Source: an uncultured Hungatella sp. (GTDB lineage Bacteria > Bacillota > Clostridia > Lachnospirales > Lachnospiraceae). Taken from it: a DNA stretch of 51,839 bases. Below are positions 39,247-50,740 of the stretch, in pieces. The first letter of the stretch is position 1. Each line of letters begins with the position of its first letter. The position numbers and the translations under genes are program-made. The notes beneath the pieces are model-generated. The model did no database searches and was not told the DNA's origin. It saw nothing but the letters and a program-made list of their open reading frames with translations. The stretch is taken from assembly GCA_947066955.1 (NCBI GenBank), contig CAMTAF010000012.1, forward strand, positions 1-51,839. Reading direction: 5' to 3'.

Positions 39247-40332
39247 ATGGCAGATGTATTATCCCAAAGTCAGATCGACGCGCTGTTGAAGTCCATGTCG
39301 TCCACTTCGGCCCAGGAGCCGGCGGCCACTGTTGTCAAGGACGAGAAAAAGAAGCCAGAGACCGAACAGGTCAAATACAGCAAGTACGACTTTTACAGTC
39401 CCAGAAAGTTTACAAAAGACAAGATCAAGATTCTCACAAGCATTTTTGAGAATTACGCGCGGATCATTACCTCGCAGGTCAACGGCATATTCCGTGTTAT
39501 GACCGATATCACTGTGATGGAAGTCCAGGAGCGGCGGTACTACGAATATGTAAACTCTCTTAATGAAAATGATACGGTTACTTTGGTTGATGCCGCGATA
39601 CAGGATTACAATAAGAATTTAGCGCCTCTTATGATGTTCGTGTCTCCCGGTCTGATCATTACCCTGATCGACCACATGCTGGGAGGCGGAGATGAGGTGG
39701 CCAAGGTCAAGCCCGGCTACCGGTACTCGGATGTGGAGACGGCGCTCTATAAAAGGATTCTCCAGTACCTGATTCAGGCATTAAAGGATGGATTTTCTAA
39801 TTATATCAGTATAAATTTCAAGTCCCGCAGGATTGAAGATAATCCCAGCATGATACAGGATGTGGGCCTTGACGAGACAGTGGCCATCATCCATCTCAAC
39901 GTGGATGTGACAGGCCTTGCGGTAGAGCGAATCCGGATCTGCCTTCCGGGCAATCTGCTGGAGAATATTTTCCAGGTAATCGACAGCCGCAAACACCTTG
40001 CGAGAGGCTACTCCTATGAGGATAACCGGGATACCATCCTGGATAATATCCGTCAGTCACAGCTTCCGGTTACCGGGCAGCTGGGAACGATCTTCCTTGA
40101 CCTTAATGATATCTACCACTTAAAGGTAGGCGATGTCATTGACATGAACAAGAGCAAGGATAAAGACGTGAAGCTGTATATCGGAAAGCAGCCGTGGTTT
40201 ACCGGCAAGATGGGGGTATACAAAAAGAATGTTGCTATCCGCATAAACAGGCGTCTCTACGAGGAAGAGACAGGAGAGCAGGGGGAAGAAACCCGAGACA
40301 GTCTGCCTGAATCAGGGGCTGAAAATATATGA
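39247..40332 (+). CDS. fliM: Flagellar motor switch protein FliM
   Basis: The protein has 361 residues. The N-terminal CheY-P binding peptide is present (VLSQSQIDALLKSM, about residues 4-17). The middle CheC-like domain includes the region around GLIITLIDHMLGGGDE, and the C-terminal SpoA/FliN-like domain ends near residue 340. It forms the switch ring with FliG and FliY. ATG after GAGGAGAGGTGGC. It is followed by cheY and flgC before fliY, which is not the common order. Confidence 0.96.
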   Translation: MADVLSQSQIDALLKSMSSTSAQEPAATVVKDEKKKPETEQVKYSKYDFYSPRKFTKDKIKILTSIFENYARIITSQVNGIFRVMTDITVMEVQERRYYEYVNSLNENDTVTLVDAAIQDYNKNLAPLMMFVSPGLIITLIDHMLGGGDEVAKVKPGYRYSDVETALYKRILQYLIQALKDGFSNYISINFKSRRIEDNPSMIQDVGLDETVAIIHLNVDVTGLAVERIRICLPGNLLENIFQVIDSRKHLARGYSYEDNRDTILDNIRQSQLPVTGQLGTIFLDLNDIYHLKVGDVIDMNKSKDKDVKLYIGKQPWFTGKMGVYKKNVAIRINRRLYEEETGEQGEETRDSLPESGAENI

Positions 40333-40777: not shown

Positions 40778-41227
40778 ATGGCTTTTTTGAGTTCATTTGA
40801 TATCAGCGCCTCCGGTATGAGCGCCCAGCGTATGAGAATGGACGTTGCTGCGGAGAATATAGCGAACATAGACTCTACCAGGACGGCAGGCGGAGGCGCG
40901 TACCGCCGGAAGAATATTGTCTTTGAAAGCTATGGCGCAGGTTCCTTTAAGGAGGCCATGCGCAGTGCTATGAAAGGGAACGGGTTCAGCAGCAGACATG
41001 CGGGAGTCCGTGTAGCAGGTATCGTCGAGGATGACCGTGAGATGAAGCAGGTGTACAATCCAAACCACCCGGATGCAGATGAAAACGGTTTTGTGACGAT
41101 GCCCAACGTGGATCTGTTAAAAGAGACGGTTGACAGCATGTCAGCTACCAGGTCCTATGAGGCAAACGTTACAGCTTTGAACGCGATGAAGCTGATGGCG
41201 CAGAAGGCTCTGGAGATCGGCAAATAA
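40778..41227 (+). CDS. flgC: Flagellar basal-body rod protein FlgC (displaced)
   Basis: The protein has 149 residues. It shows the FlgC pattern: FDISASGMSAQRMRMDVAAE-NIAN with TRT shortly after, YNPNHPDADENGFVTMPNVD and a C-terminal SATRSYEANVTALNAMKLM. It is a proximal rod protein. It normally follows flgB; here it is about 13.4 kb away, between cheY and fliY. ATG after CAGGAGGGAAAAAG. Confidence 0.95.
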   Translation: MAFLSSFDISASGMSAQRMRMDVAAENIANIDSTRTAGGGAYRRKNIVFESYGAGSFKEAMRSAMKGNGFSSRHAGVRVAGIVEDDREMKQVYNPNHPDADENGFVTMPNVDLLKETVDSMSATRSYEANVTALNAMKLMAQKALEIGK

Positions 41228-41273
41228 TCTTCAGAGCGGCCCGAATAAATAAGGATAAAGGAGATTGAAAAAA

Positions 41274-42806
41274 ATGGGCGCTAGCATCTTTAATGAAATG
41301 GAACTAGATGCCATAGGCGAAATTATGAATATCAGTCTCGGCGCGTCAGCAACGGCGGTTTCTACAATGCTGGGTACGACTGTGAACATTACCACGCCGG
41401 TGGTTTCTGTTCTGACTCGCGAAGAGTTTGAATTCAGGCGTCTGGAACCGGCTATCGGCGTTGAGATTGACTATGTCGAGGGACTGGATGGCAAGAATAT
41501 CATGATGTTCCGCCGCGAGGACGTGGGCATCATTGTGGGCACCATGCTGGGTGAGGACCCTCCGATGATGGAGGAACTGGATGAACTGCATATCAGCGCC
41601 ATCTGCGAGGTCATGAACCAGATGATGGGCGCCTCTGCCACGGCACTGTCCGAGTTCTTAGGCACGGTTGTCAATATATCCACTCCCAAGTCTTTTGACG
41701 TGGGAGACCCTGAAGATTTTAAAATGAAATATTTTCCGGAAAAGGATGGCATGGTGGTAGTCCGTTTCCGGCTGGAGATAGAGGGAAAGCTGAACAGTGA
41801 ATTTATGAACATCATGTCCACCAGCTTGACCAAGCGCCTTCTGGAGCCTTTTGCGGACAGCTTTGCCCAGGCGGAAGCCGCGGCTCAGCCCCAGCCGGCT
41901 CCCGAACCGCAGCCGGCCCCCGCGTCAAGCGGCGGGACCATGTCCCAGGAGGAGATCAATGCCATGCTGGCGGGAACTTCCGGCGCGGCAGAGCCTGCCC
42001 CTGCGTCAAGCGGCGGCGGAACCATGTCCCAGGAGGAGATCAACGCCATGCTGGCGGGAGCCTCTTCCGGCGGCGCGCAGCCTTCTCCGGCATCATCGGG
42101 CAGCGGCGGAACCATGTCCCAGGAGGAGATCAACGCTATGCTTGCGGGAGCCTCATCAAGCGCGGCTCCTACAGCTCCGGCATCATCGGGCAGCGGCGGG
42201 ACCATGTCTCAGGAGGAGATCAATGCCATGCTTGCCGGGAATTCCGGCGCGCCTCAGCCGGCTCCGACTCCTCAGGCAGCAGCGCCCCAGGCAGCGGCTC
42301 CTCAGATGGGGGCAGGCCAGCCTTACTATCCCTACCCGCCCATGGGAACGGATCCCATGATGATGCAGATGTTCACCCAGATGCAGCAGACGCAGCTCCA
42401 GATGATGGAGATGATGAAAGCGGTTACCGCATCTCACAGCGCGCCTGCCCAGAGCCAGCCTCAATCCCAGGCTCCTGCCGGAAATACTATTATCCGCCCC
42501 ATGTCCTCGCCTTCTATTTACGATGAGTCAGGAAACGGGGAGGAGGACAAGACCAATCAGGAGATGCTGATGAAGGTGCCTCTTGAGATCTCCGTGGAGA
42601 TCGGACGCACCAAGCGACTGGTTCGGGATATTTTGGAGTTTACCCAGGGTACCCTGGTGGTTTTAGATAAGATGGCCGGCGAGCAGGTGGATCTGTATGT
42701 CAACGGCCAGTGTATCGCAAAGGGTGATATCGTGGTTGTGGAGGACAACTTCGGTATCCGTATCACAGAGATCGTTACAAGGGAAATCAACCCGGAAAGC
42801 CTGTAG
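41274..42806 (+). CDS. fliY: Flagellar motor switch phosphatase FliY/FliN with tandem CheY-binding-like motifs
   Basis: The protein has 510 residues from the ATG ten bases after AAAGGAG; a TTG at 41265 is in frame. Residues 1-200 are a CheC-like domain with both phosphatase motifs (EIMNISLGASATA and EVMNQMMGASATA). Residues 205-370 are a Pro/Ala/Ser/Gln linker holding four copies of MSQEEINAMLAG at about 223, 251, 281 and 311, spaced 28-30 residues apart. This motif strongly resembles the N-terminal CheY-binding peptide of FliM. The C-terminal FliN/SpoA domain (about 430-505) begins LMKVPLEISVEIGRTKRL. The usual N-terminal copy of the motif is absent. It would be a switch component that also dephosphorylates CheY-P. 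Confidence 0.93.
   Translation: MGASIFNEMELDAIGEIMNISLGASATAVSTMLGTTVNITTPVVSVLTREEFEFRRLEPAIGVEIDYVEGLDGKNIMMFRREDVGIIVGTMLGEDPPMMEELDELHISAICEVMNQMMGASATALSEFLGTVVNISTPKSFDVGDPEDFKMKYFPEKDGMVVVRFRLEIEGKLNSEFMNIMSTSLTKRLLEPFADSFAQAEAAAQPQPAPEPQPAPASSGGTMSQEEINAMLAGTSGAAEPAPASSGGGTMSQEEINAMLAGASSGGAQPSPASSGSGGTMSQEEINAMLAGASSSAAPTAPASSGSGGTMSQEEINAMLAGNSGAPQPAPTPQAAAPQAAAPQMGAGQPYYPYPPMGTDPMMMQMFTQMQQTQLQMMEMMKAVTASHSAPAQSQPQSQAPAGNTIIRPMSSPSIYDESGNGEEDKTNQEMLMKVPLEISVEIGRTKRLVRDILEFTQGTLVVLDKMAGEQVDLYVNGQCIAKGDIVVVEDNFGIRITEIVTREINPESL
41937..42239 (+). repeat. Four tandem 84-90-base units in fliY
   Basis: The motif MSQEEINAMLAG is encoded at 41940-41975, 42024-42059, 42114-42149 and 42204-42239. 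Units two to four also share the upstream codons for SSG(S)GGT, with periods of 84, 90 and 90 bases. DNA identity is high enough for slippage or recombination to change copy number. Confidence 0.92.
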
Positions 42807-46075: not shown

Positions 46076-48235
46076 ATGAAAAAGTTACTGAGCTATTCCA
46101 TTGTACTGTTTGTACTGACCATTATTCTGTTATTGATCATACCGCTGCCGGAAGCCATGGTGGATGTGGCCATTATCCTCAATATGTCCCTTTCGCTGAT
46201 GATCCTGATCATCACCATGACCATCAAGGACGCTTTGGAGTTCTCCATATTTCCGTCCCTCCTGCTGGTCACCACCCTGTTCCGGCTGGGGATCAATGTT
46301 TCTACAACCAGAAACATCCTTACAAGCTCCGGATCCTCAGGACAGATCATCAAGGCCTTCGGTGATTTCATTCTCCAGGGCAACGTAGTAGTAGGCCTGG
46401 TAATTTACATGATCATCGTGCTCATGCAGTTCCTTGTTATCACCAAGGGCGCTGAGCGTGTATCCGAGGTTGCCGCCAGATTCACCCTGGATGCCATGCC
46501 CGGAAAACAGATGGCCATTGACGCGGATTTAAACTCCGGCCTGATCGACGAGCAGGAAGCCAAGGCGCGGCGTGAGAAGATCCAGAGGGAAGCTGACTTC
46601 TATGGTTCCATGGATGGCGCCACCAAGATCGTAAAAGGCGATTCCGTCATGTCCCTGATCACTACGGCAATCAACCTCATAGGCGGAAGCATCATCGGCC
46701 TGATCCAGGGCGGACAGACCGTGGGGGAGGTTTTGAACACCTACTCCATCGCCACCGTGGGCGACGGCCTGGTGGGCCAGATTCCATCCCTGCTGATCTC
46801 CGTGGCAACGGGCATGATCGTCACCAGGGCCGTGTCTGAGGGCAGCTTAAACGAGGATATCTCCAAGCAGTTTATGGCCCAGCCTGTGGCCATTATGATA
46901 AGCGGCATCGTCATCGCGGTGCTGGCTGTGATCCCGGGGATGCCGGTGATCCAGCTGCTGATCATCTCTCTCGGATTGGTGGGAGGCGGCTATTACCTGT
47001 ACAGGAGGATCGAGGCAGAGCCCGGCCTGGCAGTGGCGGGAGCAGGAGCCATGGGCGCGGGAGGCGCCACCACATTGAGGAACTACTCTCCCGAAGGGGA
47101 ACCGGCTCAGGGAGAGCCGGAACAGCCGAAGCCGGTGAGCGAGGAGGAGTTTTTCAAGGATGTCAACAACGTGTACAGCCTTCTTTCCGTGGAAGCCATT
47201 GAGATGGAGTTCGGCTACAGCCTGATCCCGCTGGTGGATGAGTCCGTGGGCGGGCGTCTGATCAACAGGATCATCATATTCCGAAGACAGTATGCCCAGG
47301 ATATGGGATTTGTCATCCCCTCCATAAGACTGCGGGACAGCTCGGCCCTGAATACGAACCAGTACTGTATCAAGATAAAGGGCGAGGAGGTGGCCAGAGG
47401 GGAGATCCTTATTGATTACTTCCTGGCTCTGGAACCGGAGAATCCGGAGAAGGAGATTGATGGCATCGAGACCATTGAGCCGGCATATGGTATTCCAAGC
47501 AAGTGGATCCGGCCGGAGGACAGAGAGATGGCGGAGATCTACGGATACACGGTTATCGATCCTCTGTCCGTGCTGGTGACCCATCTCTCGGAGGTGGTGA
47601 AGCAGCACGCCCACGAGCTGATCACCAGGCAGGAAGTGATCCACCTGGTGGAGAATATAAAGAAGACATCGCCGGAACTGATCGAGGAGGCATTTCCAAA
47701 CTTTATCTCCTACAGTCTGTTCCAGAAACTGCTTACCAGCCTTCTGAAAGAAGGCGTTCCGATTAAAGATTTGGAGACAATTATAGAGACAGCTTTGGAG
47801 ACCATATCTGATACAGGCCTTCCGGTCAGGGATGTGGATGGCCTCATTGAAAATATCAGAGCGGCGCTTAAAAGGACGATCACCCGCATGTACTGTGAGG
47901 ACGGCAGCATGAAGGTACTGACCCTGGATTCCGAGTTGGAGCGGACCATGGTAGGCTGCCTGTCCAAGGGGGATCGGGGATATTATCTGGCCTTAAGCCC
48001 GGATGTGCTCCAGAGCCTGGTCAACCAGCTGACAGGGCAGCTGAAAAAATTCAGCGGTCTCTCCCAGACGCCTGTGGTGCTCACATCTCAGGTCATGAGA
48101 GTGCATTTCTATCGGCTGATTGAACAGTTTTACCCCAATGTGAGAGTGCTGTCATTTAATGAGATATCCAACAATGTACAGATACAGTCTATTGGCAGTC
48201 TTACTCTCGAAGGCAGGGGGAGAATGGGGGCCTGA
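46076..48235 (+). CDS. flhA: Flagellar export-gate protein FlhA
   Basis: The protein has 719 residues. About eight N-terminal membrane spans (through residue about 315) contain the FHIPEP signature region (SLLLVTTLFRLGINVSTTRN; GDFILQGNVVVGLVIYMIIV; VSEVAARFTLDAMPGKQMAI). The long C-terminal cytoplasmic domain forms the nonameric ring that receives substrates and chaperones. ATG after GAGGGATGGAGTTTTTGC. In most Firmicutes flhF and flhG follow; here fliA follows directly. Confidence 0.97.
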   Translation: MKKLLSYSIVLFVLTIILLLIIPLPEAMVDVAIILNMSLSLMILIITMTIKDALEFSIFPSLLLVTTLFRLGINVSTTRNILTSSGSSGQIIKAFGDFILQGNVVVGLVIYMIIVLMQFLVITKGAERVSEVAARFTLDAMPGKQMAIDADLNSGLIDEQEAKARREKIQREADFYGSMDGATKIVKGDSVMSLITTAINLIGGSIIGLIQGGQTVGEVLNTYSIATVGDGLVGQIPSLLISVATGMIVTRAVSEGSLNEDISKQFMAQPVAIMISGIVIAVLAVIPGMPVIQLLIISLGLVGGGYYLYRRIEAEPGLAVAGAGAMGAGGATTLRNYSPEGEPAQGEPEQPKPVSEEEFFKDVNNVYSLLSVEAIEMEFGYSLIPLVDESVGGRLINRIIIFRRQYAQDMGFVIPSIRLRDSSALNTNQYCIKIKGEEVARGEILIDYFLALEPENPEKEIDGIETIEPAYGIPSKWIRPEDREMAEIYGYTVIDPLSVLVTHLSEVVKQHAHELITRQEVIHLVENIKKTSPELIEEAFPNFISYSLFQKLLTSLLKEGVPIKDLETIIETALETISDTGLPVRDVDGLIENIRAALKRTITRMYCEDGSMKVLTLDSELERTMVGCLSKGDRGYYLALSPDVLQSLVNQLTGQLKKFSGLSQTPVVLTSQVMRVHFYRLIEQFYPNVRVLSFNEISNNVQIQSIGSLTLEGRGRMGA

Positions 48236-48260
48236 CCGGCCATAGGGAGATGACGGGAAC

Positions 48261-49031
48261 ATGGTTCAAACAGATTATTTAGAAGAGAAGACCAATGAGG
48301 AGCTTCTTGAGATGTACCGGGCGGAGGGCAGGCTCGAGGTGAAGCAGGCCCTGGTGCTCCGCTATCTCTATATTGTAAAAACCATCGCAAACCAGATGCG
48401 CAATGTCTATACCGGATCCCTTCAAATGGAAGACATCATCAATGAGGGCGTCATCGCCATCATGAAAGGTCTTGACAGATATGACCCGGAGCGAGATAAT
48501 AAATTCGAGACTTTTATCTCAAGGCGCATCCGTGGCATGATCATCGATCTGGTGAGAAAAAACGACTGGATGCCCCGGGATTTCCGCAAACAGGTGAAAG
48601 CCATGGAGGAACAGCAGGCTGCCCTCGGCAGAAAGCTGGGACGGCTTCCCTCAGACGAGGAGGTAGCCTCCGCCATGGGCATGGATATACGGAAATACCG
48701 GAAACTGCAGCGCATGAGCGTTATGATGAACGTGCTTTCTCTGGACATGATAACCGATGACGAGGGGGAACACCAGTCTCTGCAGCTTTCCAGCGGAGAC
48801 GTGGAGTCCCAGCCGGAGAGAGCTTTTTTGAAAGTAGAATCCCGCCAGGTGCTGGCGGAGGCCATCAACAGCCTGAAAGAGAAGGAGAAGATGGTCGTTT
48901 CTCTGTACTATGTGGAGGAGCTGAACATGGGCCAGATCGCCCAGATCCTGGGAGTCAGCGAACCCCGTATCTCCCAGATACACAGTTCGGCTATCCGCAA
49001 ACTGAAGACTTACATGAGTCAATATAATTAG
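48261..49031 (+). CDS. fliA: RNA polymerase sigma factor FliA (sigma-28, SigD type)
   Basis: The protein has 256 residues. Region 2 contains GSLQMEDIINEGVIAIMKGL, DRYDPERDNKFETFISRRIR and GMIIDLVRKNDWMPRDFRKQ, a hallmark of the FliA/WhiG group. Region 4 contains the helix-turn-helix MGQIAQILGVSEPRISQIHS. It directs late flagellar and chemotaxis promoters, possibly including the one at 25616-25641. ATG after GGGAGATGACGGGAAC. Repeat A copy 4 starts four bases after the stop codon. Confidence 0.95.
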   Translation: MVQTDYLEEKTNEELLEMYRAEGRLEVKQALVLRYLYIVKTIANQMRNVYTGSLQMEDIINEGVIAIMKGLDRYDPERDNKFETFISRRIRGMIIDLVRKNDWMPRDFRKQVKAMEEQQAALGRKLGRLPSDEEVASAMGMDIRKYRKLQRMSVMMNVLSLDMITDDEGEHQSLQLSSGDVESQPERAFLKVESRQVLAEAINSLKEKEKMVVSLYYVEELNMGQIAQILGVSEPRISQIHSSAIRKLKTYMSQYN

Positions 49032-49942: not shown

Positions 49943-50740
49943 ATGTATCAGTCATTTTATACCGGCGCTTTGGGAGCCGGAACCCATATGGCAAGGATGA
50001 GCGTCATTGCCAACAACTTAGCCAACATCAACAACAATGGTTTTAAGCCCAAGACAGCGGCTTTTTCCGATCTTATGAACTACAACCTCAATGATTCGGA
50101 GGATGCCGTGACAGAGCTTCAGTCCGGAAACGGGGTGCGGATGCAGAGAACCTACACCACGTTTACCACAGATGCCCTGACTCAGACCGAGGCGCCTTTG
50201 GATTTTGCCCTTCTTGACAACAATACATTTTTCATGGTAGAAGATCCTGTCACAGGGAATATCACCTTTACCAGGGATGGCCATTTCCGCAGGGGACAGC
50301 TGGGGGAGGACTTTTTTGTCATGACAGAGGCGGGAAAGATTGTTCTGGACCAGAACGGGGAGCGCCTGGCAGCGGATCTTCCGGACCTTGAGCGGATGAT
50401 AGCGGCTTTGGAGGAGGACTATGAGGAAGAGGATTATGAGGACGATTATGAGGACGACTACGAAGACGAAGAGGAAGTCCCGAGAGTAGGCGTCTACACG
50501 TTTTCCAACCCCAGCCGCCTTATGAGCGTGGGCGACAACGAGTTCGCGGCTCCTGAGGGCATGGATGCCCAGCTGGCAGAGCATGCCAGGGTTCAGCCCA
50601 AAGCTTTGGAGCGCTCCGGAACGGATCTGGCGAAAGAGATGGCGAAATTGATTGAGTGTCAGAGGGCTTACAGCTATGCCCTCAAGATGGTGATCACCTC
50701 CGATGAGATTGAGTCCACCATCAACTCACTGAGAGGATAA
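49943..50740 (+). CDS. Flagellar rod/hook-type protein, FlgG/FlgF family (FlhP-like), with acidic insert
   Basis: The protein has 265 residues, ATG after AAGGGAGGAAGCAAAGCT, 16 bases after the preceding paralogue. N-terminal motif: HMARMSVIANNLANINNNGF. C-terminus: DLAKEMAKLIECQRAYSYAL, then IESTINSLRG. Unusually, residues about 157-178 are a run of Asp, Glu and Tyr in tandem EDY/DDY units encoded by near-identical 12-base repeats (50410-50476). This falls in the surface domain. It pairs with the previous gene to form the distal rod. Confidence 0.9.
   Translation: MYQSFYTGALGAGTHMARMSVIANNLANINNNGFKPKTAAFSDLMNYNLNDSEDAVTELQSGNGVRMQRTYTTFTTDALTQTEAPLDFALLDNNTFFMVEDPVTGNITFTRDGHFRRGQLGEDFFVMTEAGKIVLDQNGERLAADLPDLERMIAALEEDYEEEDYEDDYEDDYEDEEEVPRVGVYTFSNPSRLMSVGDNEFAAPEGMDAQLAEHARVQPKALERSGTDLAKEMAKLIECQRAYSYALKMVITSDEIESTINSLRG
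50410..50476 (+). repeat. Short tandem repeat encoding an acidic Tyr-spaced tract
   Basis: Tandem units of the type GAGGAYTATGAG/GACGAYTAYGAG encode repeated (D/E)(D/E)Y residues in the rod protein gene. Repeats of this kind are prone to gain or lose units in frame. Confidence 0.8.

What the first reader, a model, noticed from the sequence alone, without database searches (positions are those of the whole stretch)
41937..42239. FliY carries four tandem copies of a FliM-like CheY-P-binding motif in its linker
MSQEEINAMLAG repeats four times at 28-30-residue spacing between the CheC-like and FliN domains. FliM in the same operon has one N-terminal motif of this type (LSQSQIDALL), and FliY of B. 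subtilis carries one at its N-terminus. Here the N-terminus starts directly in the CheC domain, and the motif has apparently moved to the linker and multiplied. Such an array could tether several CheY-P molecules near the FliY phosphatase sites or the switch and tune switching cooperativity. Nearly identical DNA units suggest that copy number could vary between strains.
Basis: partly seen in the sequence, partly recalled or inferred. Interest (0 to 1): 0.9.

Follow-up and report, generated by a model that had tools for sequence, protein, structure and literature searches.

The report
Tandem CheY-docking motifs in FliY
In a group of gut bacteria the flagellar switch protein FliY carries a string of short peptides, each resembling the one with which FliM grips the chemotaxis signal CheY, which suggests a signal-gathering tail on the motor whose strength evolves by changing the number of copies.

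Summary
In detail: FliY (41274-42806) carries four MSQEEINAMLAG copies, 28-30 residues apart, between its CheC-type phosphatase domain and its FliN domain. A matrix built only from FliM N-terminal motifs ranks FliM's own motif and these four as the five best matches in the window's six frames. Arrays occur in many species; linker motif number runs from 0 to 5. In an evenly drawn family sample, 22 of 39 FlhF-lacking genomes with such a FliY-type protein have at least one. Motif copies are under purifying selection while their flanks drift (pN/pS 0.13 against 0.60-0.65), and copies are homogenised within species.

The other known ligand, FlhG, binds the FliY N-terminus in Bacillus. FlhF and FlhG were found in 14 of 14 genomes with an N-terminal motif and in 0 of 55 of the array lineage, so FlhG docking is unlikely here.

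Most likely this is a multivalent CheY(-P) docking array on a CheY-P phosphatase: a new variant of FliY. Binding is untested. That the motif 'moved' from the N-terminus is not shown; the two FliY types form separate clades.

The parts
41274..42806 (+). fliY; ATG start as in relatives (a TTG lies at 41265)
   Evidence: ORF; NF005995 313 bits against a cut-off of 218; relatives begin MGA(S/N)
41289..41880 (+). CheC-type phosphatase domain at the very N-terminus (end approximate); D12-E16-N19-P42 and S108-E112-N115-P138 invariant
   Evidence: PF04509 two stretches; invariant columns of A1; 4hyn chain E 5.8e-46
41940..41975 (+). motif copy 1, MSQEEINAMLAG
42024..42059 (+). motif copy 2, MSQEEINAMLAG
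42114..42149 (+). motif copy 3, MSQEEINAMLAG
42204..42239 (+). motif copy 4, MSQEEINAMLAG
42354..42428 (+). Met/Gln-rich helix in the linker after the array
   Evidence: model helix 361-385
42564..42776 (+). FliN-type C-terminal domain
   Evidence: PF01052 residues 434-504 of the 513-aa frame
39247..40332 (+). fliM, with the single N-terminal motif LSQSQIDALL at 39259-39288
   Evidence: PF02154; matrix 31.6 bits
40394..40756 (+). cheY, the proposed ligand, in the same operon
   Evidence: PF00072; T. maritima CheY chains, E about 2e-42, including 4iga

Best explanation
The four repeats are short linear docking motifs of the FliM N-terminal (EIDALL) type. On a flexible Pro/Ala/Ser/Gly linker they hold several CheY(-P) molecules next to FliY's own two CheY-P phosphatase sites and next to the C-ring into which the FliN domain inserts. 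Copy number and spacer length would set the local CheY-P concentration, and so the balance between offering CheY-P to the switch and destroying it. Shown here: the array, its likeness to FliM's motif, selection on the copies, homogenisation and change of copy number, intact phosphatase residues, cheY in the same operon, absence of FlhF/FlhG. Inferred: CheY(-P) binding, multivalency, and the effect on switching or signal termination.
For: Only FliM's own motif scores above the four copies in the window. pN/pS between copies 0.133 in the motif against 0.647 and 0.601 in its flanks; in the window 20 synonymous and 0 non-synonymous differences over six copy pairs. CheC active-site residues invariant. 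Operon cheY close to the T. maritima CheY of 4iga, named in PMC11087270 as a CheY-FliM 1-16 complex (passages); its alpha4-beta5-alpha5 stretch is strongly conserved in 83 array loci. CheY-P binds the EIDALL motif of FliM and FliY (PMC9126983, passages). FlhF/FlhG absent. A CheW-domain frame of 727 aa (CheA-like by length), a CheW and a CheV-like frame exist in the genome. Independent multiplication at the N-terminus in L235.
Against: No binding data. 17 of 39 FlhF-less family genomes have no linker motif (five of these 17 have an odd short FliY type), so the array is dispensable. L067 keeps a triplicated but drifted unit without the Gln. FliM's motif here has Gln where the FliY copies have Glu. 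T. maritima FliY is reported not to prefer activated CheY (PMC7355467, passage). Motif helices in the model have low confidence and copy 4 is not helical.
Confidence: 0.7

Rival explanations
1. The motifs dock FlhG, which loads FliY/FliM into the C-ring: an assembly device, not a signalling one.
For: The first 36 residues of FliY are necessary and sufficient for binding FlhG in Bacillus/Geobacillus (PMC12327844, passages), and the N-terminal motif lies in that part of FliY.
Against: FlhF above cut-off in 0 of 55 array-lineage genomes and FlhG only at MinD level in 0 of 55, against 14 of 14 N-motif genomes with both (13 FlhF over the cut-off, G128 just under). 0 of 8 further FlhF in the phylum sample.
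Confidence: 0.05
2. The motifs bind another partner: FliY's own domains, another C-ring or export protein, or a different response regulator such as CheV.
For: A CheV-like frame exists; some arrays have drifted in sequence (L067).
Against: The core matches FliM's CheY-binding motif more closely than anything else in the window.
Confidence: 0.17
3. The array is a slippage-prone spacer without a binding role; the motif is a relic that repeats copy along.
For: Units are homogenised within species and vary in number between close relatives; 12 of 99 members have none at the matrix threshold.
Against: Low pN/pS in the motif against its flanks, and the same core across distant members: position 3 Gln in 222 of 225 copies, position 5 Glu in 208 of 225.
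Confidence: 0.08

Closest known systems
FliY of the Bacillus subtilis type (NF005995, flagellar motor switch phosphatase)
   Same: CheC-type domain with two active sites plus FliN domain; scores over the family cut-off
   Different: No N-terminal motif; up to five motifs in the linker; no FlhF/FlhG in the genomes tested
FliM N-terminal CheY-binding motif (EIDALL)
   Same: Core L/M-S-Q-x-E-I-x-x-L/M-L/M in the same order
   Different: FliM has one copy at a free N-terminus; here several inside a linker
   Same: Three tandem motifs, spacing 27
   Different: All three at the N-terminus before the CheC domain, in a genome with FlhF: a separate multiplication

Membership tests
FliY (flagellar motor switch phosphatase) | CheC-type domain with two E/N active sites | tested here: met
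   PF04509 two stretches; E16, N19, E112, N115 invariant. The D/S-x3-E-x2-N consensus is recalled.
FliY (flagellar motor switch phosphatase) | C-terminal FliN domain and score over the family cut-off | tested here: met
   PF01052 76.3 bits; NF005995 313 against 218
FliY (flagellar motor switch phosphatase) | N-terminal EIDALL motif (usual in the family, not needed for the model's cut-off) | tested here: not met
   Frame starts in the CheC domain
FliY (flagellar motor switch phosphatase) | CheY-P phosphatase activity | not testable with these tools
   Residues only
FliM-type CheY-docking motif | Sequence of the motif | tested here: met
   16.2 bits for each copy with a FliM-only matrix
FliM-type CheY-docking motif | Short helix in a disordered stretch | tested here: inconclusive
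   Copies 1-3 helical at low confidence, copy 4 not
FliM-type CheY-docking motif | Binds CheY-P | not testable with these tools
   No complex could be predicted here
FlhG-docking FliY N-terminus | FlhF and FlhG in the genome | tested here: not met
   Own genome and 54 others of the lineage

The most novel reading that the evidence does not exclude
A lineage of flagellar motors without FlhF/FlhG has freed the EIDALL peptide from its second duty. On FliY it has become an expandable multivalent CheY-P antenna between phosphatase and rotor, so that motor gain, cooperativity or signal lifetime evolves by repeat copy number; another lineage (L235) multiplied the motif independently at the N-terminus.
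Probability: 0.42. Interest if true: 0.8.

Novelty: new variant of a known kind. Interest (0 to 1): 0.66.

Why it matters
CheY-P is generally described as meeting the motor through one N-terminal tether per FliM (and, in FliY motors, one per FliY). A natural series of FliYs with 0 to 5 linker tethers beside a phosphatase makes the roles of tether number and of rotor-bound phosphatase in switching directly testable. The near-perfect split (N-terminal FliY motif where FlhF exists, none where it is missing) is genomic support for the reported FliY-FlhG contact and separates two jobs of one short peptide.

Tried and rejected
Rejected: assembly artefact (arrays in many independent assemblies), chance, FlhG docking in this lineage. 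FtsY mistaken for FlhF: I opened ten regions with FlhF matches under the cut-off. Eight show an FtsY-type frame at the match; in L149 and L155 the frame at the match was not printed by my overlap filter; all ten lie beside an SMC-type gene (FtsY and SMC named by reading, not by a search). The first CheC helix (LSxMEIDAIGEI) scores about 10 bits and was left out of linker counts, as were QSQN matches in the Met-rich helix. 'Moved from the N-terminus' was left open.

Literature: searches listed no paper whose title or shown abstract describes tandem CheY motifs on FliY or FliM; I saw listings, and passages of six papers, no whole text. The library lacks most subscription papers; PMC3650386 (structure of FliY) was not held.

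Bias and dropped rows: the scan used QEEINAML among its query patterns and kept the best 80 of 512, so the 87 of 99 with at least one linker motif is inflated; the family sample gives 22 of 39 (my count). One search used the window, L058-L137 and L157-L186, without repeats of residues 150-320 and, for the copy table, without frames of 380 aa or less. One search kept 119 of 191 FliYs; it is a quick tree with long branches (L187, L215, L224, L256) and 44 open forks, and its 11 linker changes include L216/L222, whose match is a CheC helix. 'Classic' is an E-value band; of its 161 genomes I read 30 FliYs, all with the N-terminal motif. The FliM matrix used 108 of 151 FliM matches; the rest lacked the N-terminus or the pattern. 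No fold search was run.

Full report
Observation. FliY lies at 41274-42806 in a flagellar operon that reads fliM, cheY, flgC, fliY, fliO, fliP (flgC, fliO and fliP are named by reading). It has a CheC-type domain at its very N-terminus, a long Pro/Ala/Ser/Gly linker and a FliN domain. The linker holds four MSQEEINAMLAG copies at 41940, 42024, 42114 and 42204. FliM has one N-terminal LSQSQIDALL. Between the four copies all differences in the 12 codons are synonymous: 20 synonymous and 0 non-synonymous, summed over six pairs.

Is it a FliM-type motif? I built a matrix from 39 distinct FliM N-terminal motifs (108 FliMs). In the window's six frames its five best matches are FliM's own motif (31.6 bits) and the four FliY copies (16.2 each); the next is 13.8. 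Five residue-shuffled draws of the window reached 10.1-14.9. Of 6240 shuffled FliY linkers the 99th percentile of the best score is 8.7 and the maximum 20.5. Of 1884 other frames in fetched loci 12 have one match and none has two.

Distribution. In the same genus 10 of 26 genomes have FliY. A scan of genome contigs confirmed 512 relatives and kept 80. With loci from a family sample, 99 distinct full-length FliYs of the N-terminal-CheC type have linker motif counts of 0 (12), 1 (15), 2 (27), 3 (29), 4 (15) and 5 (1); 136 spacings have median 29 and range 22-53. This set is biased, since the scan used a motif peptide as one of its patterns. In the evenly drawn family sample, 22 of 39 FlhF-less genomes of this FliY type or score band have at least one linker motif and 17 have none (my count). 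Record titles of carriers include Hungatella, Enterocloster, Lacrimispora, Oscillibacter, Intestinimonas and Butyricicoccus. L099, whose title names a quiver-polished scaffold of 3.5 Mb, has two copies; Oscillibacter ruminantium GH1 (L111) has four. Contigs end inside the array in several metagenome assemblies (L012, L014, L209, L210), so single copy counts there need care; this holds for the window too, which is one of 240 contigs.

Evolution. Within 73 arrays, 22-residue units are 74% identical on average (217 pairs), against 44% for same-rank units of different species (6411 pairs): copies are homogenised. Near-identical proteins differ in number, for example L128 (4) and L131 (3), cores 99.3% identical; 33 of 123 pairs above 90% differ. 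pN/pS between copies is 0.133 in the motif and 0.647 and 0.601 in the flanks. Against a simple reading, many members have none, and L067 keeps a triplicated but drifted unit.

Which ligand? Two are reported for this peptide in FliY. CheY-P binds the EIDALL motif of FliM and FliY (PMC9126983, passages). FlhG binds the first 36 residues of FliY in Bacillus/Geobacillus (PMC12327844, passages). FlhF is present in 14 of 14 tested genomes with N-terminal-motif FliY (13 over the cut-off, G128 at 170.5 bits just under 174.15) and over the cut-off in 0 of 55 genomes of the array lineage, 51 of which carry at least one linker motif. FlhG follows: 14 of 14 at E 7e-92 or better; in the 55 the best match is E 1.8e-22, a level that second, MinD-like matches in the other 14 also reach. 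In the family sample of 397 genomes, FlhF at E 1e-40 or better occurs in 159 of 161 with a classic FliY (the two without are 70% and 68% complete), 5 of 9 in the next band, 3 of 38 in the band of the window's FliY, 3 of 14 in the weakest band and 0 of the 175 without a match. The five in the next band have the N-terminal motif; the four without FlhF there do not. The three exceptions in the window's band are G126, whose FliY has no motif at all, and G192 and G413, where I read only short CheC-type frames. In 35 phylum genomes FlhF occurs in 27 of 27 outside the no-N-motif clade, among them two with multi-CheC FliYs that lack the motif (G725, G526), and in 0 of 8 inside it, three of which carry linker motifs. 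FlhG is therefore a poor candidate here, and CheY the natural one. The genome has a 727-aa frame with a CheW domain (CheA-like by length), a CheW and a CheV-like frame; the operon has cheY, cheC and a cheD-like frame (cheD by reading).

Tree. FliYs with and without an N-terminal motif separate with SH-aLRT 100. L212-L215, with no motif anywhere, lie outside the 55-row array clade. N-motif presence needs at least 4 changes and linker motif presence at least 11. The correlation with FlhF is therefore few events, not many independent ones. Multiplication also arose elsewhere: L235 has three N-terminal motifs and L259 one N-terminal and one linker motif, both in FlhF-positive genomes. Of 40 further phylum loci (L237-L276), 37 have an N-terminal motif (one of them weak), two have none and one gave no FliY match.

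Structure. A model from 33 sequences (mean pLDDT 66) has a confident CheC domain and a disordered linker with short helices at copies 1-3 and a Met-rich helix at 361-385; copy 4 is not helical, and all motif blocks are under 70. CheC active-site residues are invariant. The operon's CheY matches T. maritima CheY chains including 4iga, named in PMC11087270 as a CheY-FliM 1-16 complex (passages). In the Salmonella C-ring, CheY** meets the FliM N-terminal helix through its alpha4-beta5-alpha5 face (PMC11528121, passages).

Mechanism. Most likely each copy is a CheY(-P) dock. Four on one linker beside two phosphatase sites and the rotor would raise local CheY-P. Whether this speeds termination, sharpens switching or both cannot be decided from sequence.

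Noticed in passing
window 46076-49031: flhA-like gene is followed directly by a sigma-28-like gene, with no flhF or flhG between; none was found elsewhere in the genome.
   Followed up: yes
window 40778-41227: A flgC-like gene (named by reading) sits between cheY and fliY; the order fliM-cheY-flgC-fliY holds in 63 of 95 loci compared.
   Followed up: partly
window 42354-42428: Met/Gln-rich linker helix after the array, recognisable in many relatives; possible coiled coil, function unknown.
   Followed up: no
L236 residue 34; also L219, L233: The first, catalytic CheC helix of some FliYs (LSQEEIDALGEI, 22 bits in L236) closely resembles the EIDALL motif: coincidence or common origin.
   Followed up: no
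L216, L222: FliYs of 805 and 622 aa that appear to have three and two CheC-type units, without an EIDALL motif, in FlhF-positive genomes.
   Followed up: partly
L188-L191, L204: A second, short FliY type with divergent CheC part and no motif, in FlhF-less family genomes G173, G385, G172, G040 and G071.
   Followed up: no
L067, L072: Linker units drifted to LTPDEIAAMVAG (three copies, L067) or LSPEEIAALVAG (one, L072): the repeat persists while the Gln is lost.
   Followed up: no
window 50410-50469: Short acidic tandem repeat (periods 12-15 bases; EDDYEDDYEDE) inside a flagellar rod/hook-type gene at 49943-50740.
   Followed up: no
L128, L131, L133 near 982-1110: A further frame of about 290-320 aa upstream holds one motif-like match (IEQSEIEDLMSQ, MEQADIDDLLQQ).
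   Followed up: no
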